Shown here: piece by piece, positions 6,243 through 61,437 of the stretch
Numbering within the stretch: the stretch's first letter is position 1
Layout: each line of letters starts with the position of its first letter
Source: Sinomonas atrocyanea
GTDB lineage: Bacteria > Actinomycetota > Actinomycetes > Actinomycetales > Micrococcaceae
Direction of reading: 5' to 3'
Assembly (NCBI RefSeq): GCF_030812675.1
Contig: NZ_JAUSTE010000002.1
Span: forward strand, 62,001-126,000
DNA length: 64,000 nt
The notes under the pieces: model-generated
Databases searched by the model: none
Told to the model about the DNA's origin: nothing
The model's input: only the letters and a program-made list of their open reading frames with translations
Translations under genes and position numbers: made by a program

Positions 6243-6312
6243 TCGGGTACGCATCTCGTCGCCCTTCTGGGCTCTCGGGTACGCATCTCGTCGCCCTTCT
6301 GGGCTTTCGGGG
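6243..6312. repeat. 32-bp tandem repeat at a convergent junction
   Basis: Two complete 32-bp copies (6243-6274 and 6275-6306), identical except for the last base, begin TCGGGTACGCATCTCGTCGC. They are followed by a partial third copy. They fill the space between the stop of the Lrp gene and the stop of gadB. No T-run hairpin is visible. Confidence 0.85.
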
Positions 6313-6329
6313 CCCGGGGGGGGAGCGGG

Positions 6330-7763
6330 TCAGTGGTGGAAGGCGCTCCCGTGCTCCGGGTCGGGGAAGGGCCCGTCCGCGGCGTCGAGGAAGTCCACGG
6401 CGGTGCGCAGGTCCTCGAGGAAGCTCGCGGCGAGGTCGCGCGTGAAGCCGTTGCGCACCACGATCCGCTGCACGGTCAGGTCGGCCAGGCCGTCCGGCAT
6501 CGGGTACGCGGGGACGAGCCAGCCGTTCATCCGCAGCCGGTCCGAGAGGTGGTGCAGGTTCCAGTTCTGCGTGTGCCCCGGGGCGAGGCTCCACGCGAAG
6601 ACCGGGATGTCGGAGCCGTCGTTCCATAGCTCGAAGGCCTCCATCGCGCCGATCTCGCCGGCCAGGTAGCCGGCCACGTCCCGCGACGCCGCGTGCACGG
6701 CCCGGTACCCCTCGAAGCCGAGCCGCAGGAACAGGTAGTACTGCAGGAGCACCTGGGCGCCCGGGCGGGAGAAGTTCAGCGCGAACGTCGGCATGTCCCC
6801 GCCGAGGTAGCTGACGTGGAAGACGAGGTCGTCCGGCAGCGCCGCGGCGTCCCGCCACACGACCCACCCGAGGCCCGGGTACACGAGCCCGTACTTGTGG
6901 CCGGAGGTGTTGATGGAGGCCACCCGGGGCAGCCGGAAGTCCCATTCGAGCTCCGGGGCGAGGAACGGGGCGACCATCGCCCCCGAGGCGCCGTCCACGT
7001 GGATCGGCACGTCGAGCCCGGTGGCGGCCTGGATCGCGTCCAGCGCCCGCGAGATCTCGGCGACCGGCTCGTACATGCCCGTGTAGGTGACGCCCATGAT
7101 CGCGACGACGCCGATGGTGTTCTCGTCCACGTACTCCTCGAGCCCGTGCCCGTCGAGGACCCGGTGCTCCTGCGAGATGGGCACGTAGCGGGCCTCGACG
7201 TCCCAGTAGTTGCAGAACTTCTCCCAGCAGACCTGCACCGCCGAGCTCATGACGAGGTTGGGTCGGTCCGCGGGCTTCCCGGCCGCGCGGCGGTCGTGCT
7301 GCCAGCGTCGCTTGAGCGCGAGCCCTGCGAGCATGCACGCCTCGGACGAGCCGATGGTGGAGGTCCCGACGGCGTGCTCGGGCTCGGGCGCGTTCCACAG
7401 GTCGGCGAGCATGCGCCAGCAGCGGTGCTCGATCTCGGCCGTCTTGGGGTACTCGTCCTTGTCGATCATGTTCTTGTCGACGGTCTCGGCGTACAGGCGC
7501 GCCGCCTCAGGCTCCATCCAGGTGCCCACGAAGGTCGCGAGGTTCAGGCGCGCGTTGCCGTCCAGCATCGCGTCGTCGTGCACCACCTGGTACGCCGTCC
7601 CGGGCAGGCTCTCCCCCTCGGGCAGGGTGAAGCGCGGGAATTCGCTGGCCTCCCCGGGCCGGCTGAAGAGCGGGTTCAGCTCGACGTTCGACGCCGGCTC
7701 GCGGCGCCCGCGCCGCCCTCGCCCGTCGGAGGAGGGATGGAAGGTGGAGCGGGAGGCAGACAC
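6330..7763 (-). CDS. gadB: Glutamate decarboxylase
   Basis: A 477-residue group II PLP-dependent decarboxylase converting glutamate to GABA and CO2, consuming a proton. The PLP lysine is Lys290 in SINTSGHKYG. Upstream are the family segments VGTSTIGSSEACMLAGLALK and PIHVDGASGAMVAPF, whose Asp contacts the pyridine nitrogen. Length matches the bacterial family (about 466). The start is a GTG preceded by AGGAG; no ATG lies in frame nearby. There is no glutamate/GABA antiporter next to it, so the usual acid-resistance operon is absent here; the amino-acid permease at 18712-20184 is 11 kb away. A role in GABA metabolism or pH control is inferred. Confidence 0.93.
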   Translation of the reverse strand: MSASRSTFHPSSDGRGRRGRREPASNVELNPLFSRPGEASEFPRFTLPEGESLPGTAYQVVHDDAMLDGNARLNLATFVGTWMEPEAARLYAETVDKNMIDKDEYPKTAEIEHRCWRMLADLWNAPEPEHAVGTSTIGSSEACMLAGLALKRRWQHDRRAAGKPADRPNLVMSSAVQVCWEKFCNYWDVEARYVPISQEHRVLDGHGLEEYVDENTIGVVAIMGVTYTGMYEPVAEISRALDAIQAATGLDVPIHVDGASGAMVAPFLAPELEWDFRLPRVASINTSGHKYGLVYPGLGWVVWRDAAALPDDLVFHVSYLGGDMPTFALNFSRPGAQVLLQYYLFLRLGFEGYRAVHAASRDVAGYLAGEIGAMEAFELWNDGSDIPVFAWSLAPGHTQNWNLHHLSDRLRMNGWLVPAYPMPDGLADLTVQRIVVRNGFTRDLAASFLEDLRTAVDFLDAADGPFPDPEHGSAFHH

Positions 7764-7947
7764 GGTGGCACTCCTGGGGGTCGCGTCGAGTGGGCGCCGC
7801 GTCGGAGCACAGGATCGGCCGGGCCGACGGACGGCTCCCACGCTACCGGCGCCCCGCCGGGGCGTCGAGGACCCCGCGGCGTGCGATGGTTGGTAGTGGA
7901 TGGGCGACCCGGATGGGCGACCGGGCCGGCGACCCGAAGGAGGGGCC

Positions 7948-8703
7948 ATGGCGAACGACGACGGCGGTCCGGCCGGCGCCCCCTCGCGCCCTCCGTGGGT
8001 GGCGGTGCTCGTCGCAGCGTGCGTCGTGGTCGGCGTGGGGGTCGTGGTGGCCATCGCCGCGCTGTTCATGGGACCGTCCCCCCAGCCGCCCGCACCGGCG
8101 CCGACGCCGGGAGCGTCAGGCGAGGCCGCGCCGTCGGCCGCGCCGGGCCAGGGCTACAGCCTCAGCGACCCGCTCCCCCTCGCGGCCCGGCCGGTCTGGC
8201 ACGCCGCGCCGAGCGCCGAGTACCGGCTCACCGCGGCCCCGGACGAGCTGCGCTACGTCTCCGACGCCGGCTGCCGCCTCTCCTTCCGCGCGGGGCCGCT
8301 GCAGGCGGGCGCGTCGCCGTCGAACGCGGCTCCGCGCACGACGCCGGCACCCTCCTCCGCGTCCGCCTCGCCCTCCCCGGATCCGGAGACGGCGGCCACA
8401 CGCGGCGCCCTGGCCGACGCGATCGAGGCCGAGCGCAAGGCCTCTTCCTCCGTGGGGGTCACCGAGCAGGGGCTCGTGGTCGTGACCACCCTGGGGTCGC
8501 AGGGCGGCCCGCTGGTGGACATGGCGGGGGCAGCGCTCACCGTCGGGCATACGGACGGAACGGCCACGTACGTGCGCCTGGCCGTGCGTGCGGTGCCGGC
8601 GGCTCATGCGGCCGTGGCGATCGAGGCCGAGTGCCCGCAGCCGGAGCAGGCGGCCACGGCGATGAACCACGCGAGCGTGCACGCGTACCTCGCCGACCAT
8701 TAG
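7948..8703 (+). CDS. Membrane-anchored hypothetical protein
   Basis: A 251-residue protein I do not recognise. After a short cytoplasmic Gly/Ala/Pro segment there is one transmembrane helix (about residues 17-40, WVAVLVAACVVVGVGVVVAI). A Pro/Ser-rich linker follows, then an extracytoplasmic domain with a single Cys pair candidate (AGCRLSF and EAECPQPE). A second low-complexity Ser/Pro linker splits that domain. The ATG is preceded by GGAGGGG, which decides it over an upstream in-frame ATG. It is single-gene and convergent with paaG across the 14-bp repeat array. Confidence 0.7.
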   Translation: MANDDGGPAGAPSRPPWVAVLVAACVVVGVGVVVAIAALFMGPSPQPPAPAPTPGASGEAAPSAAPGQGYSLSDPLPLAARPVWHAAPSAEYRLTAAPDELRYVSDAGCRLSFRAGPLQAGASPSNAAPRTTPAPSSASASPSPDPETAATRGALADAIEAERKASSSVGVTEQGLVVVTTLGSQGGPLVDMAGAALTVGHTDGTATYVRLAVRAVPAAHAAVAIEAECPQPEQAATAMNHASVHAYLADH

Positions 8704-8774
8704 GCGGGCCCGTGGCGCTGCAGCGCGCTGCCGCAGCGAGCAGCCCCGGCCGCCCTTCCTCCGGTCTTCCGTCT

Positions 8775-8894
8775 GAGAGTCACCTCCTGAAGGGCAGGTC
8801 CTGGGGGGGTCACCTCCTGCGGGTCGCCGGCGCGCCGACCCGCAGGAGGTGACCCCCAGGAAGTGACTCCCAGAAGGTGACCCCCAGAAGGCGC
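8775..8894. repeat. 14-bp repeat array forming a 25-bp inverted repeat
   Basis: Units of 14 bp (CAGGAGGTGACCCC type) recur at 8843, 8857, 8871 and 8885 in one orientation. The reverse orientation (GGGGGTCACCTCCTG) occurs to the left. The arms 8800-8826 and 8836-8860 are inverted and pair over 25 bp apart from two extra G. The array separates two converging genes and could fold as a bidirectional terminator. The same 14-bp unit recurs at 18627-18695. Confidence 0.85.
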
Positions 8895-8897
8895 GGC

Positions 8898-9680
8898 TCA
8901 GCGGCCGGCGAAGACGGGCTTCCGCTTCTCCTGGAAGGCCTTGAAGCCCTCGGCGTAGTCCTCAGACCCGCAGAGCGCGGCCTGGGCCTTGTTCTCGGCG
9001 TCCATGGACTCCCAGAGGCCGAGCCGGCGGTCGCGGACCTGCGCGACGAGCTCCTTGGACGCGACGAACGCGCCGGTGGCCCCGGCGGCGACGCGGGCCA
9101 CGATGCCCCGCGTGCGCTCGAGCAGCTCGCTGGCCGGGAAGGACCGGGAGAACATGCCCGAGCGCACGGCGTCCGCGCCGCTCATCAGCTCGGCGGTGTA
9201 GACGAGGTCCAGCGCGCGGTGCATGCCGAGCCGCTCGGTGAAGTACCAGTGGCCGCCGGAGTCCAGCGTGGCACCGAGGTTGGCGAACGGCGAACCGATC
9301 TTGGCCTCGTCGGCCACGTAGACCACGTCGGTGGCCAGAAGGAGCCCGAGCCCGACGCCGAGGGTAGCCCCCTGCGCGGCGGCGAACGTCGGCGCGGGGA
9401 ATGCGGCCATCTTCTGCATGAGCGGCGTCACGAGCCCGCCGAGGTAGCCGAGCACGTCATCGTCGGCGGGGTCCACGCCGGAGATGTCGCGTCCGGCGCA
9501 GAAGGCCCGGCCCTCGCCGCGCAGGAGCAGCGCCCGCACCTCGCCGCGGGAGGCGGCGGCAGCGGCGTCGTCGTACGCGTCGGAGAGCTCGCGCAGTGCG
9601 GCCTCGTCGAGGGCGTTGAGCTTGGCGGGCGCGTCGAGGACGACCTCGGCCATGCCGTCGGCGATGGAGAGCGTGATCAT
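8898..9680 (-). CDS. paaG: Ring-epoxyphenylacetyl-CoA isomerase (enoyl-CoA hydratase/isomerase family)
   Basis: A 260-residue crotonase-fold protein, last in the paaABCDE-G operon and 9 nt after paaE. PaaG converts the 1,2-epoxide made by PaaABCE to the oxepin-CoA substrate of PaaZ, and it also shifts double bonds later in the pathway. The oxyanion-hole segment is AAQGATLGVGLGLLLA, where the first hydratase Glu is replaced. The second site has Asp140 in GATLDSGGHWYF, as in PaaG-type isomerases, rather than the hydratase Glu. These residues favour isomerase over hydratase, complementing the true hydratase at 47060-47944. Confidence 0.85.
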   Translation of the reverse strand: MITLSIADGMAEVVLDAPAKLNALDEAALRELSDAYDDAAAAASRGEVRALLLRGEGRAFCAGRDISGVDPADDDVLGYLGGLVTPLMQKMAAFPAPTFAAAQGATLGVGLGLLLATDVVYVADEAKIGSPFANLGATLDSGGHWYFTERLGMHRALDLVYTAELMSGADAVRSGMFSRSFPASELLERTRGIVARVAAGATGAFVASKELVAQVRDRRLGLWESMDAENKAQAALCGSEDYAEGFKAFQEKRKPVFAGR

Positions 9681-9689
9681 GAGGGCCTC

Positions 9690-11405: not shown

Positions 11406-11440
11406 GGGTGTTCCTTCGTGGGCGTGTGCCGTTCCCGGGC

Positions 11441-13638: not shown

Positions 13639-13655
13639 GTCTCCTCCTCAAGAAA

Positions 13656-16405: not shown

Positions 16406-18622
16406 ATGACTGAAGCTGCCGCTCCCCAGGCCCCTGTCGCGAAGAAGGTGCCCACGAGGCGCGAGCGTCACGGCGACGCCTTCGTTGACCCGTACGAATG
16501 GCTGCGTGAGAAGGACAATCCGGAGGTCGTCGAGCATCTTACCGCCGAGAACGCCTACACCGATGCGGTCACGGCCGGCCAGCAGCCCCTCCGCGAGGCG
16601 ATCTTCGAGGAGATCAGGCGCCGCACCCAGGAGACGGACCTGTCCGTCCCGGCCCGCAAGGACGGGTGGTGGTACTACGCCCGCACCGTCGAGGGCCAGC
16701 AGTACCCGATCTACTGCCGGGTCAGGGCCGATGGCGCCGGCCGCGCAGACGACGGCGGCGACCTCCTCGGCGCGTGGACGCCGCCCGCCGTCGTGCCCGG
16801 CACCGCGGTCCCCGGAGAGCAGGTGCTGCTGGACGGGAACGCCGAGGCCGAGGGGCACCCCTTCTTCGCGCTCGGCGGGGCCGCCGTCTCCCGCGATGGG
16901 AACCTGTACGCCTACTCGGTCGACACCGCCGGAGACGAGACCTTCACCCTGCGCATCAAGGACCTCCGCACCGGCGATCACCTTTCCGAGGTCATCGAGG
17001 GCGTGTTCTACGGCCTCGAGTTCGATCCGGACGGCTCGCGGCTGTTCTACATGGTCGCGGACGACTCCTGGCGCCCCTACCAGGTGCGCGTGCACGTGCT
17101 CGGCACCCCGCCGGAGCAGGACACGGTCCTGTACCAGGAGGACGACGTCGCGCAGTGGACCGGGATCGACCTCTCCTCGGACCGCCGCTGGCTCCTCGTC
17201 GGGATCGGCAACTCGGAGTACTCGGAGACCCGCGTCCTCGACCTGGCCGGCCCCGACGCCCGCCTCCGGCTCGTGCTGGGGCGCGAGGAGCGCATCCTCC
17301 ACACCGCCGAGCCGTTCGAGCACGGCGGCCGCACGCGGCTGCTGCTCCTGCACGACGGGCGCCCCGAGGGCCCCGAGGGCTCGGCCCCGAACAGCATGCT
17401 CTCCCTCGTCGACCTGGCCGAGACGTCCAAGCCGCTGTCCGAACAGCGCTGGTCGACGCTCGTTCCGCACGACGAGCAGGTCAAGGTCGAGGGGGCGGAC
17501 GTCTCCGCGACGCATCTCGTCGTCACGCTGCGCAGGGACACCGTCACCACCGTCCGCTTCGCACCCCTCGCGGACGCCGTCGAGGCCGCGGACGCCGGCC
17601 GGACGCCGTCGTTCGTCGAGCCGCAGTTCGGCGAGGAGCTCTACACGGCCGGCGGCGGTGTCACCGAGCATGGCGCCCCGGTCGCGCGGCTGAGCTTCAC
17701 CTCCTACGTCACTCCCCCGCGCGTCTACGACTACGTGCTGGCCACCGGCGAGCTGCTCCTGCGGAAGGAGACCCCGGTGCTCGGCGGATACGACCCGGAC
17801 CAGTACGTGGCGGAGCGGGCCTGGGCGACGGCCGAGGACGGCACGCGCATCCCGCTGTCGGTGGTCCGGCGGGCGTCGGTCCAGCGGGACGGGACGAACC
17901 CGGCCCTCGTCTACGGGTACGGCTCGTACGAGGTGAGCATGGACCCGGCCTTCGCCGTGGCCCGGCTCAGCCTCCTGGACCGGGGCATCGTGTTCGTCGT
18001 CGCCCACGTGCGCGGCGGCGGCGAGCTGGGGCGCCACTGGTACGAGGACGGCAAGAAGCTGAACAAGCGGAACACGTTCACCGACTTCGTCGCCGCCACC
18101 GACTGGGTCGCCTCCTCGGGGTGGGCGGACCCGGCCCGGATCGCCTGCATGGGCGGCTCCGCCGGCGGCCTGCTCATCGGTGCGGTGCTGAACCTGGCCC
18201 CGGAGAAGTACGCGGCCGCCGTCGCCCAGGTCCCGTTCGTGGACGCCCTCACCACGATCCTGGACCCCGAGCTGCCGCTCTCCGCCCTCGAGTGGGAGGA
18301 GTGGGGCAACCCGATCGAGGACGCCGAGGTCTACGCCTACATGAAGTCCTACACGCCCTACGAGAACGTGCACTCGGCCCCGTATCCGAAGGTCGCCGCC
18401 GTGACGAGCTTCAACGACACGCGCGTGCTGTACGTCGAGCCGGCCAAGTGGGTCCAGGCGCTGCGCGAGGCCACCACATCCGGGCAGCCGATCGTGCTCA
18501 AGACCGAGATGGACGCCGGGCACGGCGGCGCGTCGGGACGCTACGAGGCGTGGAGGGAGCGGGCCTGGGACTACGCGTTCATCGCGGACGCCCTCGGCGC
18601 CACGGAACTCCTCCCCCGCTGA
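16406..18622 (+). CDS. ptrB: Oligopeptidase B (S9 family serine peptidase)
   Basis: A 738-residue prolyl-oligopeptidase-family enzyme with an N-terminal beta-propeller and a C-terminal alpha/beta-hydrolase domain. The catalytic triad is Ser585 (CMGGSAGGLL), Asp671 (FNDTRV) and His706 (MDAGHGG). The motif YVEPAKW after the Asp is typical of oligopeptidase B, which cuts short peptides after Arg or Lys in the cytoplasm. The ATG has no ribosome binding site; TAGGGT ends 6 nt before it, suggesting a leaderless message. It is a single gene convergent with a permease gene. Confidence 0.92.
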   Translation: MTEAAAPQAPVAKKVPTRRERHGDAFVDPYEWLREKDNPEVVEHLTAENAYTDAVTAGQQPLREAIFEEIRRRTQETDLSVPARKDGWWYYARTVEGQQYPIYCRVRADGAGRADDGGDLLGAWTPPAVVPGTAVPGEQVLLDGNAEAEGHPFFALGGAAVSRDGNLYAYSVDTAGDETFTLRIKDLRTGDHLSEVIEGVFYGLEFDPDGSRLFYMVADDSWRPYQVRVHVLGTPPEQDTVLYQEDDVAQWTGIDLSSDRRWLLVGIGNSEYSETRVLDLAGPDARLRLVLGREERILHTAEPFEHGGRTRLLLLHDGRPEGPEGSAPNSMLSLVDLAETSKPLSEQRWSTLVPHDEQVKVEGADVSATHLVVTLRRDTVTTVRFAPLADAVEAADAGRTPSFVEPQFGEELYTAGGGVTEHGAPVARLSFTSYVTPPRVYDYVLATGELLLRKETPVLGGYDPDQYVAERAWATAEDGTRIPLSVVRRASVQRDGTNPALVYGYGSYEVSMDPAFAVARLSLLDRGIVFVVAHVRGGGELGRHWYEDGKKLNKRNTFTDFVAATDWVASSGWADPARIACMGGSAGGLLIGAVLNLAPEKYAAAVAQVPFVDALTTILDPELPLSALEWEEWGNPIEDAEVYAYMKSYTPYENVHSAPYPKVAAVTSFNDTRVLYVEPAKWVQALREATTSGQPIVLKTEMDAGHGGASGRYEAWRERAWDYAFIADALGATELLPR

Positions 18623-18626
18623 TCCC

Positions 18627-18695
18627 GGGGGGTCACCTTCGGGGGGTCACCTTCTGGGGGTCACCTTCTGAGGGTCACCTCACGGACGCTGACCC
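18627..18695. repeat. 14-bp tandem repeat at the ptrB/permease convergent junction
   Basis: Four units of 14 bp with TCACCTT/C at 18633, 18647, 18661 and 18675 (core GGGGGTCACCTTCTG). An inverted half unit (GCTGACCCCC) follows near 18688. It is the same unit as in the array at 8775-8894, 10 kb away. The array starts within 5 nt of the ptrB stop. Confidence 0.85.
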
Positions 18696-18711: not shown

Positions 18712-20184
18712 TCAGACGTTCGCGTCCACGCTCTCCGCCTCGGCGTCGCCGGAGGCTGCTGCCGCGGCCGCCTCCCGGCGCCGGACGAGCAGCCAGCCGA
18801 GCCAGAGGAGCAGCGCGATCACCGGAACGCTGAGGATGGTGTACAGGCCGATCGGGAAGACCTCGCCGGTGGCCTTGTCCGTCATGGTGTCGAACGCGAT
18901 GAGCACCGTGATCGCGGCCAGCGCGGCCAGACCGAGCCAGCTGGTCCAGGGCGAGCCGGGCATCGGAAGCGAGGACGCGCCGTCGCCCTTCTTCTTCCGC
19001 AGCATGAGCTGGCACGCGAAGATCGAGCCCCACGTGAAGATCACGCCGATCGAGGCGGTGTTGAGCGCGAGGTCGAACGCGTGCGTGCCGCCGGCCCAGA
19101 TGTTCACGAGGATGCCCACCAGGTACACGGCGGCGATGGCGAGGATCGCAGCGTAGGGCACGTGCCGCTTGGACATGCGGGTGAGCCAATGCGGCGCGTG
19201 GCCGTTGGAGGCCATGGTGCGGAAGATGCGGCCGATCGAGTAGAGGCCGGTGTTGGACGAGCTCAGCGCGGCGGTGATGACCACGAGGTTCATGACGTCG
19301 CCGATCCACCCGACGCCGAGGTGGTCGAAGACCGTGACGAACGGGCTCACGCCGGCCTTGTACTGGTCCGAGGGCAGCAGCATCGCCAGGAGCAGGACGG
19401 AGCCGACGTAGAAGACGACGATCCGCAGCACCACGGCGCGGATGGCGCGGGGGACCTCCCGCTGCGGGTCCTCCATCTCGCCGGCGGTGATGCCGACCAG
19501 CTCGATCGCGTTGTAGGCGAAGATCACGGCGTTGAGCACGAGGATCATCACGAAGAAGCCGTGCGGGAACATGCCCCCGTCGCCGGAGAGGAGGTTCGAC
19601 GGGGACGCGTGCGTGGTACCGATCCGGGTGTTGAGGACCACCATGACCGTGCCGGCCACGAGGAAGAGCGAGATCGCGGTCACCTTGAGCACGGACGCCC
19701 AGAACTCGAACTCCCCGAAGGCCCTGACGCTGAGCAGGTTCACGGCCACGAGCAGGGCCAGCGCACACAGCGCCGAGACCTCCACCGGCACGTTCGGGAA
19801 GAAGTACTGGAAGTACAGGCCGATCGCGAGCAGTTCGGCGATGCCGGTCATGGCCCAGTTGACGAAGTACATCCACCCGGACAGGTAGGCGCCCTTGGCC
19901 CCGAACATCTCCCCCGCGTAGCTCACGAACGAGCCCGACGTCTGCCGGTACATGATCAGCTCGCCGAGCGCCCGCATGAGCAGGTACGCGATGGCGCCCG
20001 CGATCGCGTAGGAGAACACGAGCGCAGGACCGGTCGAGGCGAGCCGTCCGCCCGCGCCCATGAACAGGCCGACGCCGATGGCGCCGCCCATGGCGATCAT
20101 CTGCACATGGCGGCGGCTGAGAGCCCTCTCATAGCCCTCGGCGGACACGGCTGGGGGCGTGGAGGCGTGGTGGTTCTGCTGCAC
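18712..20184 (-). CDS. Amino-acid permease (APC superfamily, AnsP/GABA-permease type)
   Basis: A 490-residue integral membrane transporter with about 12 helices. The N-terminal motif ALSRRHVQMIAMGGAIGVGLFMGAG and the later NAIELVGITAGEMEDPQREVP are hallmarks of the amino acid transporter branch that includes asparagine, GABA and D-alanine/D-serine permeases. It should import a neutral or small amino acid with protons. The exact substrate cannot be read from sequence. Start is GTG with GAAGGA 5 nt upstream. The 115-bp gap to ackA contains only degenerate CTCGTGTG-like repeats. Confidence 0.9.
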   Translation of the reverse strand: MQQNHHASTPPAVSAEGYERALSRRHVQMIAMGGAIGVGLFMGAGGRLASTGPALVFSYAIAGAIAYLLMRALGELIMYRQTSGSFVSYAGEMFGAKGAYLSGWMYFVNWAMTGIAELLAIGLYFQYFFPNVPVEVSALCALALLVAVNLLSVRAFGEFEFWASVLKVTAISLFLVAGTVMVVLNTRIGTTHASPSNLLSGDGGMFPHGFFVMILVLNAVIFAYNAIELVGITAGEMEDPQREVPRAIRAVVLRIVVFYVGSVLLLAMLLPSDQYKAGVSPFVTVFDHLGVGWIGDVMNLVVITAALSSSNTGLYSIGRIFRTMASNGHAPHWLTRMSKRHVPYAAILAIAAVYLVGILVNIWAGGTHAFDLALNTASIGVIFTWGSIFACQLMLRKKKGDGASSLPMPGSPWTSWLGLAALAAITVLIAFDTMTDKATGEVFPIGLYTILSVPVIALLLWLGWLLVRRREAAAAAASGDAEAESVDANV

Positions 20185-29348: not shown

Positions 29349-30494
29349 ATGGGCCTGACCTCGCGCCGGGCGTTCCTCGGGCTGGCGCTGGCGGGCACAG
29401 CGTCCGGTGCGGCCGCAGCGCTCGGCGCGTGCACGCCGTCGTCCACCGCCCCGCCCTCATCAGCCGCCACGGCCTCCTCCGCGGCCGGCAGCCCAGCGCC
29501 CGGCACGGCCTCGGGCGCTGCACCAGCCCCGCGGGTGACCGGGACTGTTGCCGGCGGGCTGGACACGCCGTGGTCGATCGTGTTCCTTCCCGGCGGCTCG
29601 GCGCTCGTGTCCGAACGCGGCACCGGCCGCATCCTCGAGGTGCCCGCGGGCGGCGGCGCGGCCCGCGAGGCCGGGCGGATCGACGTCCGGACCGACACGA
29701 GCGAGGGCGGCCTCCTCGGCCTCGAGCTCTCGCCGAAGTTCGCCGCGGATGCCACGGTCTTCGCCTACTGCACCGCCGGCCCCGGCAACCGGGTCGTGGC
29801 CCTGCACTGGGACGGGCGTTCGGTGGGCGGCGCGCGGGTGCTGGTGGACGGGATCCCTGCCGGGACGTTCCACAATGGCGGCCGGATCAAGGTGGGCCCG
29901 GACGGCATGCTGTACATCGGCACCGGCGACGCGACGCGCCAGTCCAACTCCCAGGACCTCGGCAGCCTCGGCGGGAAGGTCCTGCGCGTCGCACTCGACG
30001 GTTCGCCCGCGCCGGGGAACCCCTTCGGGACCCGGGTCTACACGTACGGCCACCGGAACGTGCAGGGCCTCGCATGGGACTCCGCCAGCCGCCTCTGGGC
30101 GAGCGAGCTCGGGCCCGACCGCGACGACGAGCTCAACCTGCTCGCCCCGGGCGCCCAGTACGGGTGGCCCGCCGTGACCGGCGCCCGCAGCGTCAACGGC
30201 AGTGTCCCTGCCGTCCACGTCTGGCCGAACACCGCGGACGCGTCGCCGAGCGCCCTCGCGATCGCGGACGACGTCGCGTACGTCGCGTGCCTGCGGGGCC
30301 AGCGGCTCTGGCGGCTCCCGCTCCCGGCCCCGGGCTCGCCAGTGCCCGGCGGCGGGGCCCTTCCGGGCGCGGCCGAGTACTTCAGGGGCCAGTACGGGCG
30401 GCTCCGCGAGGTGGTCCGGGTCCCGGGGCGGCGGGAGCTGTGGATGGCGACGAACGAGGGCACGGGCTCGCGCATCCTCGCCGTCGCCATCTAG
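29349..30494 (+). CDS. Tat-exported lipoprotein, PQQ-dependent sugar dehydrogenase-like (GSDH family)
   Basis: A 381-residue protein. The N-terminus carries a twin-arginine signal (TSRRAFLGLALAG) joined to a lipobox (LGAC), so it should be exported folded and anchored by lipid. After a Ser/Ala-rich linker comes a six-bladed propeller of the glucose/sorbosone dehydrogenase family: LDTPWSIVFLPGG, EGGLLGLELSPKF, LYIGTGD, YTYGHRNVQGLAW and WASELGPDRDDELN. Relatives oxidise sugars using PQQ. The ATG has GGAGGG 9 nt upstream. No PQQ biosynthesis genes are in the window. A non-catalytic sugar-binding role is an alternative. Confidence 0.85.
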   Translation: MGLTSRRAFLGLALAGTASGAAAALGACTPSSTAPPSSAATASSAAGSPAPGTASGAAPAPRVTGTVAGGLDTPWSIVFLPGGSALVSERGTGRILEVPAGGGAAREAGRIDVRTDTSEGGLLGLELSPKFAADATVFAYCTAGPGNRVVALHWDGRSVGGARVLVDGIPAGTFHNGGRIKVGPDGMLYIGTGDATRQSNSQDLGSLGGKVLRVALDGSPAPGNPFGTRVYTYGHRNVQGLAWDSASRLWASELGPDRDDELNLLAPGAQYGWPAVTGARSVNGSVPAVHVWPNTADASPSALAIADDVAYVACLRGQRLWRLPLPAPGSPVPGGGALPGAAEYFRGQYGRLREVVRVPGRRELWMATNEGTGSRILAVAI

Positions 30495-30534: not shown

Positions 30535-30660
30535 GTTGAGGGGTCATGTCCCAAGGTTGAGAGGTCATGTCCCAAGGTTGAGGGGTCATGTCCCTGCGAG
30601 CGCCGTCCGCGGCGTCCTAGGGACATGACCCCTCACCGTAGGGACATGACCCCTCACGGG
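30535..30660. repeat. 21-bp repeat array, three forward and two inverted units
   Basis: TTGAGGGGTCATGTCCC repeats every 21 bp (TCATGTCCC at 30544, 30565 and 30586). After a GC-rich centre the inverted unit GGGACATGACCCCTCA repeats at 30620 and 30641, again 21 bp apart. The two sides can form a long hairpin between the converging sugar dehydrogenase and mtlD genes. Confidence 0.9.
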
Positions 30661-30674: not shown

Positions 30675-31883
30675 TCAGTCGGGCTGCGCCGCCCCCGCCG
30701 GCCTGACTCTAGCCTCCTTGACCCGAGCCGCGACCGCGTTGTGGAGCGGGTGGCCGGCGGGGAGGCCCGTGATCTCCTCGACGAGGGCCTCGTCGGTGGA
30801 CTGGCCGGCGAGCATGGCCTGGAGGCGCTGGGCCTCCTCGTCGTCGGCGGCGTCGAAGGCGAGGGCCGCGCCCATCGCCTCCACGAGCGAGTCGGCCACC
30901 ATGCCGCGTTCGGCAAGCTCGGCCGCCGGACCGATGAACCGCTCGTGGCGGGACAGCTTGCGCAGCGGCGCGCGGCCCACACGCTCCACCGTGTCCGGCA
31001 GCGCCGGGTTGGCGAACCGGCCGAGGATCTTCTCCACGTAGGCCTGCTGCTGCTCGGGCGCGAAGCCGTACTTGGCCACGAGCAGCGACTTGGTCTCGGC
31101 GAGGACGGCCTCGACCTTCGCCCGGACCTCGGGCATGGCCAGGGCGTCCGAGATCTTCTCGGCCCCGGCGCGCCGCCCGAAGTACGCCGCGGAGGCGTGC
31201 CCGGTGTTGACGGTGAAGAGCTTGCGCTCGATGTACGGCCCGAGCGAGTCCACCCACGTGACGCCGGGGATCTCGGGCACGTCGTCCCCGAAGGGCTCCT
31301 GCTCGATCGCCCACTCGAAGTACGGCTCGACCCGCACGTCGAGGCCGCCGGCGGGGTCCTGGTTCGGCACGATCCGGTCCACGGCGGTGTTGGCGAACAC
31401 GGCGCGCGCGTCCACGGCCGCGTCATCGAGCCCCTCCCCCGCCGCCGCGGCACGGATCTCCGCCTCGAGGATGTCCGTGGCGTTGATCGCGTTCTCGCAC
31501 GCCATCACGGCGAGCGGGCCAGCGCCGGCGGGCCGCGCGGCGATGCCGCGCGCGATCGCCGGGGCGACGAACCTGAGGATGCTCGGGCCCACCGCCGTGG
31601 TGACGATCTCCGCCTCCGCGATCCGGTCGACGAGCTCGGCCTCGTTCGTGGCCGAGTTCACCGCCGTGTAGCCGTCCACCACGTGGTCGACGCCGCCCTC
31701 GCCCACCTCGTGCACGGTGTACGAGGGGGTGGCATTGATCGCGTCGATGAGGGGCGCCGCGACGTCGGCGAACACGAGCCGGTAGCCGGCGTTGTGGAGC
31801 AGGAGCCCCACGAAGCCGCGGCCGATGTTCCCTGCGCCGAAGTGGACCGCGGTACCCCGGGACCCTGTCGCTGCCTCGCTCAC
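30675..31883 (-). CDS. mtlD: Mannitol-1-phosphate 5-dehydrogenase
   Basis: A 402-residue NAD-dependent dehydrogenase oxidising mannitol 1-phosphate to fructose 6-phosphate. The Rossmann motif is VHFGAGNIGRGFVG at the N-terminus. Family segments VACENAINA-like and KLSRHERFIGPAAEL are present. The ATG overlaps the mtlA stop by 4 nt, so it is coupled to the transporter that supplies its substrate. Confidence 0.95.
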   Translation of the reverse strand: MSEAATGSRGTAVHFGAGNIGRGFVGLLLHNAGYRLVFADVAAPLIDAINATPSYTVHEVGEGGVDHVVDGYTAVNSATNEAELVDRIAEAEIVTTAVGPSILRFVAPAIARGIAARPAGAGPLAVMACENAINATDILEAEIRAAAAGEGLDDAAVDARAVFANTAVDRIVPNQDPAGGLDVRVEPYFEWAIEQEPFGDDVPEIPGVTWVDSLGPYIERKLFTVNTGHASAAYFGRRAGAEKISDALAMPEVRAKVEAVLAETKSLLVAKYGFAPEQQQAYVEKILGRFANPALPDTVERVGRAPLRKLSRHERFIGPAAELAERGMVADSLVEAMGAALAFDAADDEEAQRLQAMLAGQSTDEALVEEITGLPAGHPLHNAVAARVKEARVRPAGAAQPD

Positions 31884-44579: not shown

Positions 44580-44611
44580 AGGACGACGACGGGCGGCCCC
44601 GTCGTCGTCCT
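44580..44611. terminator. Perfect 14-bp hairpin between the converging SGNH and GNAT genes
   Basis: AGGACGACGACGGG / CCCGTCGTCGTCCT with a 4-nt loop, centred between two converging stop codons; a likely bidirectional terminator. Confidence 0.75.
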
Positions 44612-45274: not shown

Positions 45275-46006
45275 TCAGCCCTTCGTCGAGGCGAGCTTGG
45301 CCCTGATGGCGGCGATGTCCGCGGGAGCGAGGCCGTGGTCGAGGAGGAAACGCTCCACGTCGAGTCCGGCCGCGAAGGCCGCGAGCGCCTCCTGCCGTTC
45401 GGCGATCATCGGCGCCAGCTCGGCGTCGTCGTGCCAGCGTTCGTAGGGATGCCTGACCGGGCTGATCCGGTGCCACTCGTTGATGCCCCGGACGCTGGCC
45501 TCGTACTGCGCGGCGACGGCCTCCGGGGCTGCGGCCGGGTCCGCGAGCTGCAGGAGCATGGTGACGACCAGGCCCGTGCGGTCCCGGCCCGCCGAGCAGT
45601 GCAGCACGACGCCGGCCGGCGCCTCCGCGACCGTACGGAACACGGCGGCGATCAGCTCGGGGAAGAGGCGCACCGTGCCCGGGTAGCCCTTGGGGTGGTT
45701 CAGGTACGGGACGAGCTCGGCCGCGAACCGCGCCGCGTGCTCGGGGTGGGCGGGGTCCTCGGTGGGCGTGTTCACGATCGTGATCCCGTCCATGGCCTCG
45801 GGCCGGACGTCGGGGTCGGTCGGGCGGCGGCGCTGCTCGTCCGGGTTCCGCAGGTCGATCACGGTGCGGACGCCGTCGTCGTGCATCTGGCGCCACCCGC
45901 GCTCGGTGAGCCATTCGCGCCGCCCCATCCGGTAGACCGAGCCGAGGACGCGCCGGGCGTTGACGGAGCCTTCCCAGGCGACAGCGTCACTCGGTGCGTC
46001 CCTCAT
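45275..46006 (-). CDS. Tyrosine/lipid phosphatase of the MptpB-like family
   Basis: A 243-residue phosphatase. The P-loop is HCSAGRDRTG with nucleophile Cys137 and Arg143, the extended HCxxGxxRT form of bacterial dual-specificity and phosphoinositide-type phosphatases such as mycobacterial PtpB. The N-terminus has GSVYRMGRREWLTERGW and TVIDLRNPDEQ. Substrate is unknown. The start at 46006 is preferred because upstream in-frame sequence is made of the 22-bp repeat array. Confidence 0.87.
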   Translation of the reverse strand: MRDAPSDAVAWEGSVNARRVLGSVYRMGRREWLTERGWRQMHDDGVRTVIDLRNPDEQRRRPTDPDVRPEAMDGITIVNTPTEDPAHPEHAARFAAELVPYLNHPKGYPGTVRLFPELIAAVFRTVAEAPAGVVLHCSAGRDRTGLVVTMLLQLADPAAAPEAVAAQYEASVRGINEWHRISPVRHPYERWHDDAELAPMIAERQEALAAFAAGLDVERFLLDHGLAPADIAAIRAKLASTKG

Positions 46007-46026
46007 GGCACCATCTTCCCCCTTCC

Positions 46027-46175
46027 TTGCGGGGTCCCTGGCGCGTCGTTGCGGGGTCCCTGGCGCGTCGTTGCGGGGTCCCTGACGGGTCGTTGCGGGG
46101 TCCCTGGCGCGGCGAGGCCCCGCAACGGCATGCCAGAGACCCCTCAATGGAGCGCCAGAGACCCCTCAACGGGTC
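46027..46175. repeat. 22-bp repeat array, four direct and about three inverted units
   Basis: TTGCGGGGTCCCTGGCGCGTCG repeats every 22 bp (46027, 46049, 46071, 46093) with small changes. The inverse (GCCAGAGACCCCTCAA type) recurs at about 46110, 46132 and 46154. It lies just beyond the paaH stop and upstream of the phosphatase gene. The same unit is at 56736-56780. Confidence 0.88.
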
Positions 46176-46185
46176 GCGGCGGCGG

Positions 46186-47055
46186 TCAGGACCAGTTGTA
46201 GAAGCCCTTGCCGGTCTTCCGGCCGAGTTCGCCGGCGGCGACCTTGTCGCGCAGGATCTGGGGCGGGGCGAAGCGGTCGCCGAGGGTGGAGGCCAGGTAC
46301 TCGGCGATGCCGAGCCGGACGTCCAGGCCCACGATGTCGGTGGTCTTCAGCGGGCCTGTGGGGTGCTTGTAGCCCAGGACCATGGCGTTGTCGATGTCCT
46401 CCGCGGACGCCACCCCCTCCTCGACCATGCGCATCGCCTCGAGCGCGATCGCCACGCCGAGGCGCGAGGACGCGAACCCGGGGGCGTCCTTGACCACCAC
46501 GGCCGTCTTGGCGAGCCCGGCGACCCAGCCGCGGGCGGCGGCCTCGGTCTCCGCGGACGTCTTCTCGGCGATGACCACCTCGATCAGGGTCGAGGCCGGG
46601 ACCGGGTTGAAGAAGTGCAGGCCCAGGAACCGCTCGGGCCGGGCGAGGGACTCGGCCAGCTTCGAGACGGACAGGGAGGAGGTGTTGGTGGCCAGGAACG
46701 CGCCCGGGGCGAGCTCCGCCTCGACCGCGGTCAGCGCCGAGACCTTCAGGGCCGGGTCCTCGGGCACGGCCTCGACCACGAGGTCCCGGCCGCGGAAGTC
46801 GGCGTAGTCCACGCTCGTGGAGAAGGACTCGAGGATCTCGTCGAGATTGCCCTCGGCCGCGCCGCGCTCGATCGACTTCGCCACCGATGCCTCGACCCGT
46901 TCCCGGGCCCCCTGGGCGGCCTGCTCGTCGCGCTCGACGACGACCACGTCCGGCCCGCCCATGAGGAACGCGTGCGCGATCCCGGCGCCCATCCGCCCGC
47001 CGCCGAGCACTCCCACGCGTGCGGGCAGGCCCTCGGCCAGAGTGATCTTTCCCAT
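46186..47055 (-). CDS. paaH: 3-hydroxyacyl-CoA dehydrogenase of phenylacetate degradation
   Basis: A 289-residue NAD-dependent dehydrogenase. The Rossmann motif is VGVLGGGRMGAGIAHAFL. Downstream family segments are VVEAVPEDPALK, LATNTSSLSVSKLA and GLHFFNPVPASTLIEVV, with the catalytic His in LHFFNP. It oxidises the 3-hydroxyadipyl-CoA-type intermediate to the 3-oxo form used by the thiolase. It is the third gene of thiolase-hydratase-dehydrogenase, 4 bp after the hydratase, under the operator at 49233. A general butyryl-CoA role is possible. Confidence 0.88.
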   Translation of the reverse strand: MGKITLAEGLPARVGVLGGGRMGAGIAHAFLMGGPDVVVVERDEQAAQGARERVEASVAKSIERGAAEGNLDEILESFSTSVDYADFRGRDLVVEAVPEDPALKVSALTAVEAELAPGAFLATNTSSLSVSKLAESLARPERFLGLHFFNPVPASTLIEVVIAEKTSAETEAAARGWVAGLAKTAVVVKDAPGFASSRLGVAIALEAMRMVEEGVASAEDIDNAMVLGYKHPTGPLKTTDIVGLDVRLGIAEYLASTLGDRFAPPQILRDKVAAGELGRKTGKGFYNWS

Positions 47056-54670: not shown

Positions 54671-54685
54671 GCGCCCGGGGCTCCC

Positions 54686-54739
54686 CCGCGGCTGCCGGTA
54701 CCCCCGCGGCTGCCGGTACCCGCCCGGCTGCTAGTACCC
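54686..54739. repeat. 18-bp tandem repeat at the VOC/ldh convergent junction
   Basis: CCGCGGCTGCCGGTACCC repeats at 54686 and 54704, with a diverged third unit at 54722 that contains the ldh stop codon. The repeat thus extends into the last codons of ldh. Confidence 0.75.
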
Positions 54740-55684: not shown

Positions 55685-55753
55685 GGTCACAGCGTAGCCC
55701 GCACCCTCGGGCACGGCTCCCCCCGCGTGCGCCGCCGACTAGACTCTTTCCAC

Positions 55754-56725
<972 letters not shown>

Positions 56726-56735
56726 GCGCACGGCC

Positions 56736-56780
56736 GCCAGAGACCCCGCACCACCCCGCCAGAGACCCCGCAACGAGAGG
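56736..56780. repeat. 22-bp repeat between menB and menE
   Basis: GCCAGAGACCCCGCA at 56736 and 56758 is spaced by 22 bp and matches the inverted-orientation unit of the array at 46027-46175. It begins 11 nt after the menB stop and ends 13 nt before menE. Confidence 0.75.
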
Positions 56781-56792
56781 CGCCCCCGCACC

Positions 56793-57938
56793 GTGAACCT
56801 GGACCCCGTGCTCTCAGCCCTCGCCGCCGCACTCGCGGGCGAGGGCCCGGCGGTCGAGTTCGGCCCGGGCGGCCCCGCATTGGCTGGGCACAGCAACGGG
56901 TCCGCGCTGCCCGAGGGCACGGCGATCGTGGTCCGCACGTCCGGCTCGACGGGGGAACCCAAGGCGACCGCCCTCACCGTCGAGGCCCTCGCTGCGTCCT
57001 CGGCGGCCACGGCGATGCGCCTCAGGGGCGAGGGCCAGTGGCTGCTCGCGCTGCCCCTCGCCTACGTCGCCGGCGCGCAGGTCCTGGTCCGCTCCCTGTT
57101 CGCCGGGACGCGGCCCTGGGCGATGGACCTCTCTGGCGGATTCAGGCCCGAGGCCTTCGCCGACGCCGCGGAGGCCCTCACCGATCCGATCCGGTTCACC
57201 TCCCTCGTGCCCACCCAGCTGCGCCGCCTGCTCGACGACGGCTCGCCCCGGGTGCTCGCAGCCCTCACCCGCTTCGACGCCGTGCTGCTCGGCGGCGCGG
57301 CGATGTCGCAGGACCTCCTCGACCAGGCCCGCGAGGCCGGGGTGCGGGTGGTGACGACGTACGGCTCCGCGGAGACCTGCGGCGGCTGCGTGTACGACGG
57401 CGTGCCGCTGGACGGCGTCGACGTCGAGCTCGTGGACGGCCGGGTGTGGCTCGGCGGAGACGTGGTGGCCGCCGGGTATGTGGGAGACCCGGAGCGCACC
57501 GAGGCGCACTTCCGCACCGACGCGGACGGCCGCCGGTGGTACCTCAGCTCCGACGTGGGCGAGTTCGCGCCCGACGGTCGCCTCCGGATCCTGGGGAGGG
57601 CGGACGACGTCGTCATCACCGGCGGCGTCAAGGCCTCCGCCGCTCGGGTCGCGGCGGCTGTCGAGGCCCTGCCGGGAGTGCGTGAGGCGTTCGTGGCCGG
57701 CGTCGACGATCCGGAGTGGGGGCAGGCGCTCGCCGCTGCCGTGGTCCTCGCGGCGCCCGAAGGCCGGGCTGGAGAGCAAGCGGTGCCGGAGGACATCCGC
57801 GCGGCGGCCGCGGAGCGGCTCGGCCGGCTCGCGCCGAAGTCGTGGCTGGCCCTGGAGTCCCTCCCGCTCCTGCCGAACGGGAAACCGGACCGCAGGGCCC
57901 TCACCGAACTCCTGGCCGCCAGGCACCGCAGGCCCTAG
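56793..57938 (+). CDS. menE: o-Succinylbenzoate-CoA ligase
   Basis: A 381-residue acyl-CoA synthetase, short for its superfamily but usual for actinobacterial MenE. The AMP-binding motif is VVRTSGSTGEPKATALT. Later adenylation motifs are YGSAETCGGCVYDG, WYLSSDVGEFAPDGRLRILGRADD and the C-terminal LPNGKPDRRALTE. It activates o-succinylbenzoate for MenB. Start is GTG, without a clear ribosome binding site, directly after the 22-bp repeat. Gene order B-E does not follow the pathway order E-B. Confidence 0.92.
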   Translation: MNLDPVLSALAAALAGEGPAVEFGPGGPALAGHSNGSALPEGTAIVVRTSGSTGEPKATALTVEALAASSAATAMRLRGEGQWLLALPLAYVAGAQVLVRSLFAGTRPWAMDLSGGFRPEAFADAAEALTDPIRFTSLVPTQLRRLLDDGSPRVLAALTRFDAVLLGGAAMSQDLLDQAREAGVRVVTTYGSAETCGGCVYDGVPLDGVDVELVDGRVWLGGDVVAAGYVGDPERTEAHFRTDADGRRWYLSSDVGEFAPDGRLRILGRADDVVITGGVKASAARVAAAVEALPGVREAFVAGVDDPEWGQALAAAVVLAAPEGRAGEQAVPEDIRAAAAERLGRLAPKSWLALESLPLLPNGKPDRRALTELLAARHRRP

Positions 57939-57993
57939 CGCACGCCGCCCCTCAGCCTTCACCCACCCCCACCACCGTCAGAGGAATCAGCCC

Positions 57994-58875: not shown

Positions 58876-58950
58876 ACCGTCGGAAGTGACGGCGGCCAGC
58901 GGCCGTCCGGGGCAGCCAGAAATGTCGTAGTGGCGTTCTAGTATGTGCCT

Positions 58951-60608: not shown

Positions 60609-60610
60609 CG

Positions 60611-61093
60611 CTAGGAGGCCGTTCCCTCGCCACCGGGGTTCTGGGGGTTCTGGGCCTTCCGGTCCTGCAGCGTCCGGTCTCGGTTCTCATCCGCTGCCCT
60701 CTCAGCGGGAACCCCGGTGCGCTCGGTGGCGGTGGCCTCGGTCGCATTGTGCTCGGTCGCGGTGCCCTCGGCGTCGGTGCGCTCGGTCGCGGTGCCCTCG
60801 GCGTCGTCGTACTCGGCGTCCTCGTCGGCGCGCTGTGCGTCGTCGAGCGCGTCCTCCACCTCGGCGTCCGCGACCTCGCGCTTGGTGCGCACCTGCTTGC
60901 GGCCGCCGAAGACATCGCGGACCTCGCTGGCGGCGGCGTTGCGCTGGCGCGTCAGGAACAGGAAGTTGATCGCGAAGGCGATGAGCACGGCGTAGACGGC
61001 AGAGAGGACCACTCCGATGCGCAGCACCATGAACACCGCGAACGGCACAACGAACAGGACGGCACGGAGCAGGAAGTACTTGAGGGAGGCCAC
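60611..61093 (-). CDS. DUF4229 small membrane protein
   Basis: A 160-residue protein. Two helices lie in the N-terminal 55 residues (YFLLRAVLFVVPFAVFMVL and VVLSAVYAVLIAFAINFLFL), followed by a charged cytoplasmic tail. The last 70 residues contain imperfect repeats of EGTATERTDA. It is a regular neighbour of menA in this group of actinobacteria, with no known function. Start is GTG, 6 nt after TAAACT and without a ribosome binding site. Confidence 0.8.
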   Translation of the reverse strand: MASLKYFLLRAVLFVVPFAVFMVLRIGVVLSAVYAVLIAFAINFLFLTRQRNAAASEVRDVFGGRKQVRTKREVADAEVEDALDDAQRADEDAEYDDAEGTATERTDAEGTATEHNATEATATERTGVPAERAADENRDRTLQDRKAQNPQNPGGEGTAS

Positions 61094-61118
61094 TGGACGA
61101 GTTTACTAAAATGGTCCT
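61094..61118. promoter_or_regulatory. 25-bp divergent promoter for two apparently leaderless genes
   Basis: The minus-strand gene has -10 TAAACT (61100-61105) and the plus-strand gene has -10 TAAAAT (61107-61112), each 6 nt from its start codon and 1 bp apart. Both -35 regions must lie inside the opposite coding sequence, so RNA polymerase could occupy only one direction at a time. Confidence 0.7.
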
Positions 61119-61382
61119 ATGATCCGCGTCCTGCCCTGGCTCATCGTCCTGGTCGCATGGCTGTATGGCATGGTCGACTGCGCACTCAGTGACCGCCGCG
61201 CCGTCCGGGGTGGCATCTCGAAGACGCTCTGGTTCCTCATCTCGGTGCTCCCTGCCGTGGGCACCATCCTGTGGTTCGCCTTCGGCCGGCCACGGGGCAC
61301 CACCCCGCCGCGCGGCAGGGACGGAAAGGGCCGCCGCCCGATGGCACCGGACGACGACCCTGACTTCCTCCGCGGACTCTGA
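61119..61382 (+). CDS. PLDc_N-domain small membrane protein
   Basis: An 87-residue protein with two helices: LPWLIVLVAWLYGMVDCAL and TLWFLISVLPAVGTILWFAFGRPRG. This is the phospholipase-D-nuclease N-terminal (PLDc_N) fold seen alone in many actinobacteria. The C-terminal tail is basic, then acidic (PDDDPDFLRGL). It is a constant neighbour of the ccsB/resB genes; function unknown. Confidence 0.85.
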   Translation: MIRVLPWLIVLVAWLYGMVDCALSDRRAVRGGISKTLWFLISVLPAVGTILWFAFGRPRGTTPPRGRDGKGRRPMAPDDDPDFLRGL

Positions 61383-61393
61383 GCGCCGCGTCC

Positions 61394-61437
61394 GCTCTCC
61401 CGACGGTCAGCCGGCTCTCCCTACTGTCAGCCGGCGC
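61394..61437. repeat. 20-bp direct repeat at the PLDc_N/ccsB convergent junction
   Basis: GCTCTCCCGACGGTCAGCCG and GCTCTCCCTACTGTCAGCCG, at 61394 and 61414. The second copy enters the ccsB stop and final codons, as at the ldh junction. Confidence 0.7.

What the first reader, a model, noticed from the sequence alone, without database searches (positions are those of the whole stretch)
6243..61437. Eight short repeat arrays with locus-specific periods sit directly after stop codons, mostly where genes converge
The arrays are at 6243, 8775, 18627, 30535, 46027, 54686, 56736 and 61394, with periods of 32, 14, 14, 21, 22, 18, 22 and 20 bp. Six of the window's eleven convergent gene junctions carry one; two others carry perfect 14-bp hairpins; the remaining three have overlapping ends or at most 13 bp of space. 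The two arrays at non-convergent sites also follow a stop codon. Three families share a GGGGTC core (GGGGTCACCTTC, GGGGTCATGTCCC, GGGGTCCCTGGC). I know no element that fits: the units are too short and too direct for CRISPR, and no transposase is present. A rapidly changing class of bidirectional transcription ends, or of sites expanded by slippage or a nuclease, are possibilities.
Basis: seen in the sequence. Interest (0 to 1): 0.8.

Follow-up and report, generated by a model that had tools for sequence, protein, structure and literature searches.

The report
Fast-changing repeat arrays at gene ends
In the soil bacterium Sinomonas, gaps after genes, above all where two genes end face to face, hold small arrays of a 16-17 base motif that was not found in related genera, changes from species to species at the same spot and often folds into strong hairpins, so it probably helps to mark where reading of a gene stops and may be read by a still unknown factor.

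Summary
In detail: all eight arrays are in the window, 6 of 11 convergent junctions carry one, and each lies within 20 bp of a stop codon. They are not eight unrelated repeats. Six belong to four genome-wide families: A (8775, 18627), B (30535), C (46027, 56736), F (6243). Two (54686, 61394) have no relatives in the 1.18 Mb of this genome held. B and C share a half-motif TTGNGGGGTC with different tails. Its tandem form occurs in 10 of 15 Sinomonas genomes and 0 of 380 other Micrococcaceae. The tail differs between species, even at the same orthologous junction. Units stand at fixed 21- or 22-bp periods with near-random spacers; two 98%-identical genomes differ by whole units at 5 of 9 shared arrays. 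At convergent junctions most arrays are inverted and fold strongly, with self-complementary linkers; single-orientation arrays do not fold beyond background. No REP-type (Y1) transposase was found in 15 genomes, and no IS21 end examined carries the units. Best reading: a lineage-specific, REP/BIME-like extragenic repeat population without palindromic units or detectable RAYT, serving as bidirectional 3'-end hairpins at convergent genes and probably recognised by an unknown factor. Termination and recognition are untested.

The parts
6241..6311 (+). Family F array, two copies, period 32 (TTTCGGGTACGCATCTCGTCGC + spacer), between convergent genes 5735-6190(+) and 6330-7763(-)
   Evidence: the orthologous junction in G013 and G008 has copies on both sides of a long hairpin
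8775..8891 (.). Family A array (GGGGGTCACCTTCTG type, period 14), both orientations around a long hairpin, between convergent genes 7948-8703(+) and 8898-9680(-)
18626..18680 (+). Family A array, period 14, followed by a partial inverted copy, between convergent genes 16448-18622(+) and 18712-20184(-)
30535..30657 (.). Family B array (TTGAGGGGTCATGTCCC, period 21): three forward and two inverted units, between convergent genes 29535-30494(+) and 30675-31883(-)
46023..46172 (.). Family C array (TTGNGGGGTC(T/C)CTGGC, period 22): four forward and two inverted units, between the stop of 46186-47055(-) and the start of 45275-46006(-)
54683..54739 (+). Locus-specific array, period 18, at convergent junction 54670/54731, running into the end of the minus gene
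   Evidence: no other copy within 2 mismatches in 1.18 Mb
56736..56773 (-). Family C array, two units on the minus strand, between co-directional genes 55754-56725(+) and 56793-57938(+)
61394..61435 (+). Locus-specific array, period 20, at convergent junction 61382/61427, running into the end of the minus gene
   Evidence: no other copy within 2 mismatches in 1.18 Mb
44581..44610 (.). Array-less convergent junction with an ordinary 13-bp-stem hairpin (GGACGACGACGGG-CGGC-CCCGTCGTCGTCC), for comparison; G003 has a similar hairpin at the orthologous place
   Evidence: read

Best explanation
The arrays are members of a Sinomonas-specific population of short extragenic repeats. SHOWN: the main unit is a 16-17 bp bipartite motif, a half kept across much of the genus (TTGNGGGGTC, free at N) plus a tail that differs by lineage (ATGTCCC, TCTCTGGC, CCGTCC, ACCTCCC and others). 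Units stand head to tail at a fixed 21- or 22-bp period with near-random spacers. Whole units are gained and lost over short times. Arrays lie between genes, mostly after stop codons and above all where genes converge; there most are inverted and form a hairpin whose stem runs on through the linker to a small loop. INFERRED: (1) the hairpin arrays act as bidirectional transcript 3' ends, or protecting 3' stems, for convergent genes, in the place of ordinary hairpins; (2) the kept core, free spacer and fixed phase mean that the core is recognised by a sequence-specific factor (a DNA-binding roadblock, an RNA-binding protein, or an unknown copying enzyme as in REP/RAYT systems) whose specificity for the tail shifts between lineages; (3) arrays grow and shrink by slippage between the kept halves, which can change the tail at a site without a new insertion.
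For: Genus restriction: tandem half-core in 10 of 15 own-genus genomes and 0 of the other 380 family genomes searched, reversed-pattern controls 0-1 per genome; A, B and C each in 1 of 43 genera. Core against spacer: with only GGGGTCTCTGGC fixed twice, 51 distinct intervals give TG 51 of 51 and the T before it 40 of 51, but spacer positions 3-5 at 0.15-0.34 bits and N at 0.50 bits; other seeds agree. Period: C 22 bp in 29 of 29 (own) and 70 of 72 (G014) neighbouring pairs, B 21 bp in 57 of 59 (own). Position. Hairpins: mixed-orientation convergent arrays outside the C1/window sample fold at mean z -7.4, 31 of 31 under -2, against -2.9 for array-less convergent gaps (n 59) and -0.3 for divergent gaps (n 60); linkers of 10-17 nt between facing units pair at 22 of 31 (own, 9 linkers) and 20 of 30 (G014, 9 linkers) inner positions against 12.2 and 10.8 expected, P 0.0003 and 0.0002. 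Same place, other unit: junctions 8703, 18622 and 30494 each carry at least two unit types among sister species; array presence follows the junction (17 of 52 cells, P 0.023). Whole-unit differences at 5 of 9 aligned arrays of G003 and G014.
Against: Single-orientation arrays do not fold beyond background: co-directional mean z -1.0 (n 12), convergent -2.5 (n 13) against -2.9 for array-less convergent gaps; they are 17 of 27 co-directional and 17 of 52 convergent arrays. So the hairpin is not the whole story. No orientation bias at co-directional junctions (43 sense, 42 antisense). Between G003 and G014 cores change (20 of 494 sites) faster than other intergenic DNA (0.0205) and about as fast as third codon positions (0.034), and not clearly slower than spacers (12 of 171); part is copy-number misalignment and the free N, but this weakens the case for present purifying selection. 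Family A has a 14-bp period, which does not fit the B/C design. No T-run follows the stems of the window arrays. No RNA or binding data; no factor identified; 5 of 15 genus genomes lack the half-core arrays.
Confidence: 0.5

Rival explanations
1. Selfish or decayed non-autonomous mobile elements: the units are transposase-binding sites (as the repeated end units of IS21-family elements, or REPIN-like) copied about the genome by an unseen or lost enzyme and left mainly where harmless, i.e. after genes.
For: Species-specific families, dispersed copies, inverted pairs and location are those of REP/REPIN elements (PMC3733652, PMC8049555 passages; PMC2817692 abstract). IS21 elements in this genus have ends with head-to-tail units of about 22-25 bp, and IS21 ends are typically made of repeated elements L1, L2, R1, R2 (PMC11208146 passages). 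Cores evolve about as fast as spacers at short range. Some F copies form pairs of equal outer size, 92 bp.
Against: Y1 transposase (PF01797) in 0 of 15 genomes (the control search rang in 5 of 14 known genomes). In 8 IS21-bearing stretches TTGNGGGGTC is absent and occurs only as scattered one-mismatch hits, never tandem. None of the 16 genes flanking the window arrays is recognisably a transposase. At 56736, C units in G000, G002 and G012 and other tails in G003 and G014 share the exact boundary CCCCGCAAC|GAGAGG, unlike fresh insertions. Plasmid search with one B and one C array gave only weak scattered matches. Genes beside the arrays of the other fetched loci were not annotated, so an element elsewhere is not excluded.
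Confidence: 0.28
2. Plain hairpin terminators: any stem would do; units spread by rare recombination and grow by slippage, and the shared core is only a trace of that spread.
For: Array-less convergent gaps also fold (53% of 59 under z -2), and one such window gap has an ordinary hairpin. Whole-unit turnover is fast.
Against: A near-random spacer of constant length beside a kept core, with one free position inside it; single-orientation arrays without stems.
Confidence: 0.15
3. Iteron-like initiator sites or DNA-uptake sequences.
For: 17-bp units at 22-bp period with TTGAGGGG recall RK2 iterons (from memory); uptake sequences can sit in inverted pairs at gene ends (from memory; only listings seen).
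Against: Tens to about two hundred tandem pairs per genome, almost all between genes; TrfA search found nothing, but its controls did not ring either, so that test says little.
Confidence: 0.04

Closest known systems
REP / BIME / REPIN repeats (GTAG- and CGTC-tagged palindromes, RAYT transposases)
   Same: Short extragenic units, dozens to hundreds per genome, species-specific families, inverted and tandem arrangements, mainly at convergent and unidirectional gene ends, local amplification
   Different: Single units are not palindromic; units start GTTG or GACG, not GTAG or CGTC; head-to-tail at fixed 21/22 bp with free spacers; kept half plus lineage-specific tail; no Y1/RAYT gene found in 15 genomes
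Ends of IS21-family insertion sequences
   Same: Head-to-tail units of about 22-25 bp in tandem at each end, in inverted orientation (PMC11208146 passages)
   Different: Other letters; no istA/istB between the arrays; units not found at the ends examined
Intrinsic (hairpin) transcription terminators
   Same: GC-rich stem just after stop codons, bidirectional at convergent genes
   Different: Arms built from a genome-wide motif repeated in phase; no T-run in the window arrays; some arrays have no stem

Membership tests
REP/BIME/REPIN | Unit is itself a palindrome (stem-loop) | tested here: not met
   single B and C units fold no better than shuffles, z -0.55 and -0.03; a two-unit A string z -1.25
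REP/BIME/REPIN | GTAG or CGTC tag at one end | tested here: not met
   units begin GTTG or GACG
REP/BIME/REPIN | RAYT (Y1 tyrosine transposase) in the genome | tested here: not met
   PF01797 in 0 of 15 genus genomes; control rang in 5 of 14. Loss in all, or a RAYT too divergent for the model, is not excluded
REP/BIME/REPIN | Extragenic, convergent and unidirectional gene ends, inverted or tandem groups | tested here: met
IS21 ends or IS21-derived MITE | Unit sequence shared with a full element | tested here: not met
   no TTGNGGGGTC in 8 IS21-bearing stretches except one-mismatch hits; only part of the IS21 copies listed was read
IS21 ends or IS21-derived MITE | Target-site duplication and empty sites | tested here: inconclusive
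   junctions without an array exist (G008, G004), but no clean duplication was seen by eye
CRISPR array | 24-48 bp repeats with unique spacers of similar size | tested here: not met
   16-17 bp cores with 4-6 bp spacers
Intrinsic terminator | GC-rich stem after the stop codon | tested here: met
   mixed-orientation arrays only
Intrinsic terminator | Transcripts end there | not testable with these tools
   no RNA data
Known structured RNA family | Match in Rfam | tested here: not met
   0 matches in the window at gathering score
DNA uptake sequence | Hundreds to thousands of dispersed copies, also inside genes | tested here: not met
   20 of 221 classified half-core sites in coding sequence (loci partly chosen for arrays); at most 209 tandem pairs per genome

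The most novel reading that the evidence does not exclude
A recognition system unknown so far: a Sinomonas factor (or family of factors) binds phased arrays of a bipartite 16-17 bp motif at gene ends and stops or insulates converging transcription. One half of the motif is fixed and the other is rewritten genome-wide as lineages diverge, so the factor's specificity and its sites co-evolve quickly, with several specificities living in one genome.
Probability: 0.3. Interest if true: 0.82.

Novelty: new variant of a known kind. Interest (0 to 1): 0.62.

Why it matters
How high-GC actinobacteria end transcription without T-runs, and how short extragenic repeats spread and persist without a visible transposase, are open questions. 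Here both become testable in one genus: the same junction with different units in sister species is a natural swap experiment, and a motif with a fixed half and a lineage-specific half gives a direct handle for finding what recognises it.

Tried and rejected
RAYT/REP transposase: none found. IS21: elements exist in the genus and have a similar end architecture but other letters. Stretches round weaker transposase-like hits were scanned for GGGGTC-type patterns: in L254 a B array lies at a convergent junction about 1.2 kb from such a gene; in L197 (G002) a 14-bp array with a B-like tail (GGGGGTCATGTCCC) lies between the end of one gene and a transposase-like gene whose own upstream side has two other 24-bp units; I read this as an element beside an array, but did not prove it. 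Plasmid homologues of one B and one C array: only weak scattered hits. Facing arrays about 1 kb apart (L119, L120, L121, L123) looked like element ends, but gene order and lengths match between G000 and relatives (L121/L125, L119/L126, L120/L123), so they are old, shared positions. Strand-biased (Rho-type) signals: no orientation bias. Helical phasing of facing units: gaps cluster at steps of about 10.5 bp (Rayleigh P 0.0015-0.044 on 6-12 values, several periods tried), but the self-complementary linkers can explain it. TrfA test uninformative. Other genera: 0 arrays in 35 convergent junctions of 15 genomes, but gene calls in lower-GC genomes were poor and only 2.9 kb of convergent gap was seen. 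Similarity of A units to the anti-Shine-Dalgarno sequence (recalled) was set aside, since B and C lack it.

Dropped rows: the G003 rows were left out as orthologues of G014 (57 intervals taken, 51 distinct; the list was not capped for the genomes used). Linkers outside 10-17 nt (12 of 21 own, 14 of 23 G014; most of the long ones span a further unit) were left out. Array G003 52460 lies in no aligned block and is not among the 9. The G017 stretch (1,025 bp) was not used. G014 was left out of the permutation. TRF rows outside period 10-60 (10-40) and overlapping lower-scoring rows were dropped. Most loci and all were fetched because they hold units, and species share orthologous arrays, so searches are not unbiased samples; searches are. 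An earlier count said 5 of 10 arrays; the recount is 5 of 9.
Full report
OBSERVATION. In 864 kb of this genome 23 of 199 tandem arrays lie in convergent gaps that make up 1.8% of the sequence, and A/B/C motif sites fall 20 convergent, 14 co-directional, 4 coding, 0 divergent of 38. The genes flanking the eight arrays are ordinary: 15 of 16 have a Pfam match, none a transposase.

WHERE IT IS FROM. The window is part of an unnamed 4.12-Mb genome in 32 contigs. A scan of one genome per species for a tandem C pattern returned 40 stretches, 36 titled Sinomonas and 4 scattered others.

THE UNITS. Four genome-wide families explain six of the eight arrays: A (8775, 18627), B (30535), C (46027, 56736) and F (6243). 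The arrays at 54686 and 61394 have no other copy within 2 mismatches in 1.18 Mb. B and C are one bipartite motif: TTGNGGGGTC followed by a tail. In the places listed the commonest tail differs by genome: ATGTCCC in G000, G004 and G008; TCTCTGGC in G003 and G014; CCGTCC in G001; ACCT(C/T)CC in G011; ACGTCCG frequent in G013; G002 and G012 mixed; several tails also share one genome. Tandem half-cores occur in 10 of 15 genus genomes and 0 of the other 380 family genomes searched. F occurs in 4 of 15 (34 copies in G000, 34 in G013, 39 in G008, 2 in G011).

CORE, SPACER, PHASE. A pattern fixing only GGGGTCTCTGGC twice at 22 bp was listed genus-wide. Of 57 intervals taken (G003 left out) 51 are distinct: the TG of the next unit is invariant (51 of 51), the T before it 40 of 51, position N is nearly free (0.50 bits) and spacer positions 3-5 carry 0.15-0.34 bits. 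Seeding on either half of B or C gives the same picture. Neighbouring C units are 22 bp apart in 29 of 29 (own) and 70 of 72 (G014) cases, B units 21 bp in 57 of 59 (own); A units 14 or 28. A constant-length but near-random spacer beside a kept core is what recognition sites show. Against this, at the short range of G003/G014 the cores (20 of 494 sites changed) are not clearly slower than spacers (12 of 171), change faster than other intergenic DNA (0.0205) and about as fast as third codon positions (0.034). Part of that comes from copy-number misalignment and changes at N, as the alignments show.

SAME PLACE, OTHER UNIT. Junction 8703/8898 carries A in G000 and G013, C in G002, G003, G014 and G012, a B-like array in G011, and none in G008 and G004. 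Junction 18622/18712 carries A in G000, G013 and G004 and another unit in G003 and G014; none was seen in G008, G002 and G012. Junction 30494/30675 carries B in G000, G008 and G004, a TCACTTCCC tail in G002 and G012, and TCACCTCC with a GACG or GATG start in G013 and G011. At the co-directional junction 56725/56793 C units (G000, G002, G012) and other tails (G003, G014) share the exact boundary CCCCGCAAC|GAGAGG, and G004 is empty. By automatic scoring, which misses some arrays read by eye, array presence follows the junction (17 of 52 cells, permutation P 0.023). Several unit types stand in one array in G012 and G002, so a slippage deletion between kept halves could change the tail without a new insertion (inference).

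TURNOVER. G003 and G014 are about 97-99% identical over the aligned pieces. Of nine orthologous arrays displayed, five differ by whole units of 21 or 22 bp.

STRUCTURE. Of 52 multi-unit arrays at convergent junctions 35 hold both orientations (20 <>, 15 ><); at co-directional junctions 10 of 27. Mixed convergent arrays outside the C1/window sample fold far better than 60 shuffles each (mean z -7.4, 31 of 31 below -2), as do mixed co-directional ones (-5.4, n 8). The 6 convergent array gaps of the C1/window sample give -6.8 (5 of 6). Array-less convergent gaps give -2.9 (n 59), divergent gaps -0.3 (n 60). Single-orientation arrays stay at background: convergent -2.5 (n 13), co-directional -1.0 (n 12). 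Single units do not fold; a central facing pair folds at z -7.3. Linkers between facing units differ in letters but are self-complementary (22 of 31 and 20 of 30 inner positions, G-U pairs counted; P 0.0003 and 0.0002), so the stem continues to a small loop. This is either kept pairing or the trace of inverted duplication. Some F arrays likewise flank long unrelated hairpins. Facing gaps cluster at steps of about 10.5 bp, but the hairpins may account for that.

WHAT IT WORKS LIKE, AND WHAT IT IS A MEMBER OF. In location, copy number, orientation patterns and species-specificity it behaves like REP/BIME repeats. PMC3733652 (passages) reports REPs mostly between unidirectional and convergent ORFs, in head-head, tail-tail and head-tail dimers. 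PMC2817692 (abstract) ties REPs obligately to RAYTs. PMC8049555 (passages) describes REPINs as non-autonomous elements duplicated by RAYTs, with local amplification probably by the host. Membership fails on palindromic unit, tag and RAYT. IS21 ends are the second resemblance: PMC11208146 (passages) says the ends typically hold at least two repeated elements each, and ends in this genus look so, but none examined carries these units. For uptake sequences only search listings were seen. Literature searches on Sinomonas with repeats, convergent genes with tandem repeats or terminators, and extragenic repeats in Micrococcaceae listed no paper whose title or abstract start describes these arrays; they cover open-licence papers only, and most hits were not opened.

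VERDICT. A real, genus-specific, fast-changing class of extragenic arrays. Hairpin 3'-end function at convergent sites is well supported by structure but untested. A dedicated recogniser is suggested by the kept core and fixed phase, is weakened by the fast short-range change of the cores, and is unproven.

Noticed in passing
G009 stretches, L159-L161 and L237-L244: A Sinomonas genome without tandem half-cores has other tandem units at several convergent junctions, some flanking a hairpin (one with a T-run), and 27 matches to the IS21 transposase model.
   Followed up: partly
G000 C2:233539-233630, G008 C7:21101-21192, G008 C9:85641-85732: F-family inverted pairs of the same outer size (92 bp) at three places, as a miniature element would give.
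   Followed up: no
G003 (L151) and G014 (L162), junction orthologous to window 18622/18712: A 465-494 bp gap with arrays of ACGCCGAAGTCACCCC and GGTGACCTCGACGCC, a further unit family.
   Followed up: partly
L197:2430-2570 (G002): A 14-bp-period array whose units carry a B-like tail (GGGGGTCATGTCCC) beside a transposase-like gene with two 24-bp units of its own upstream; it links families A and B.
   Followed up: partly
window 60715-60816 and 62519-62589: Tandem repeats of periods 15/30 and 18 in predicted coding sequence, apparently unrelated to the arrays.
   Followed up: no
window 8775-8891: A units contain TCACCTCCT, which resembles the 3' end of 16S rRNA (recalled); probably coincidence.
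   Followed up: no
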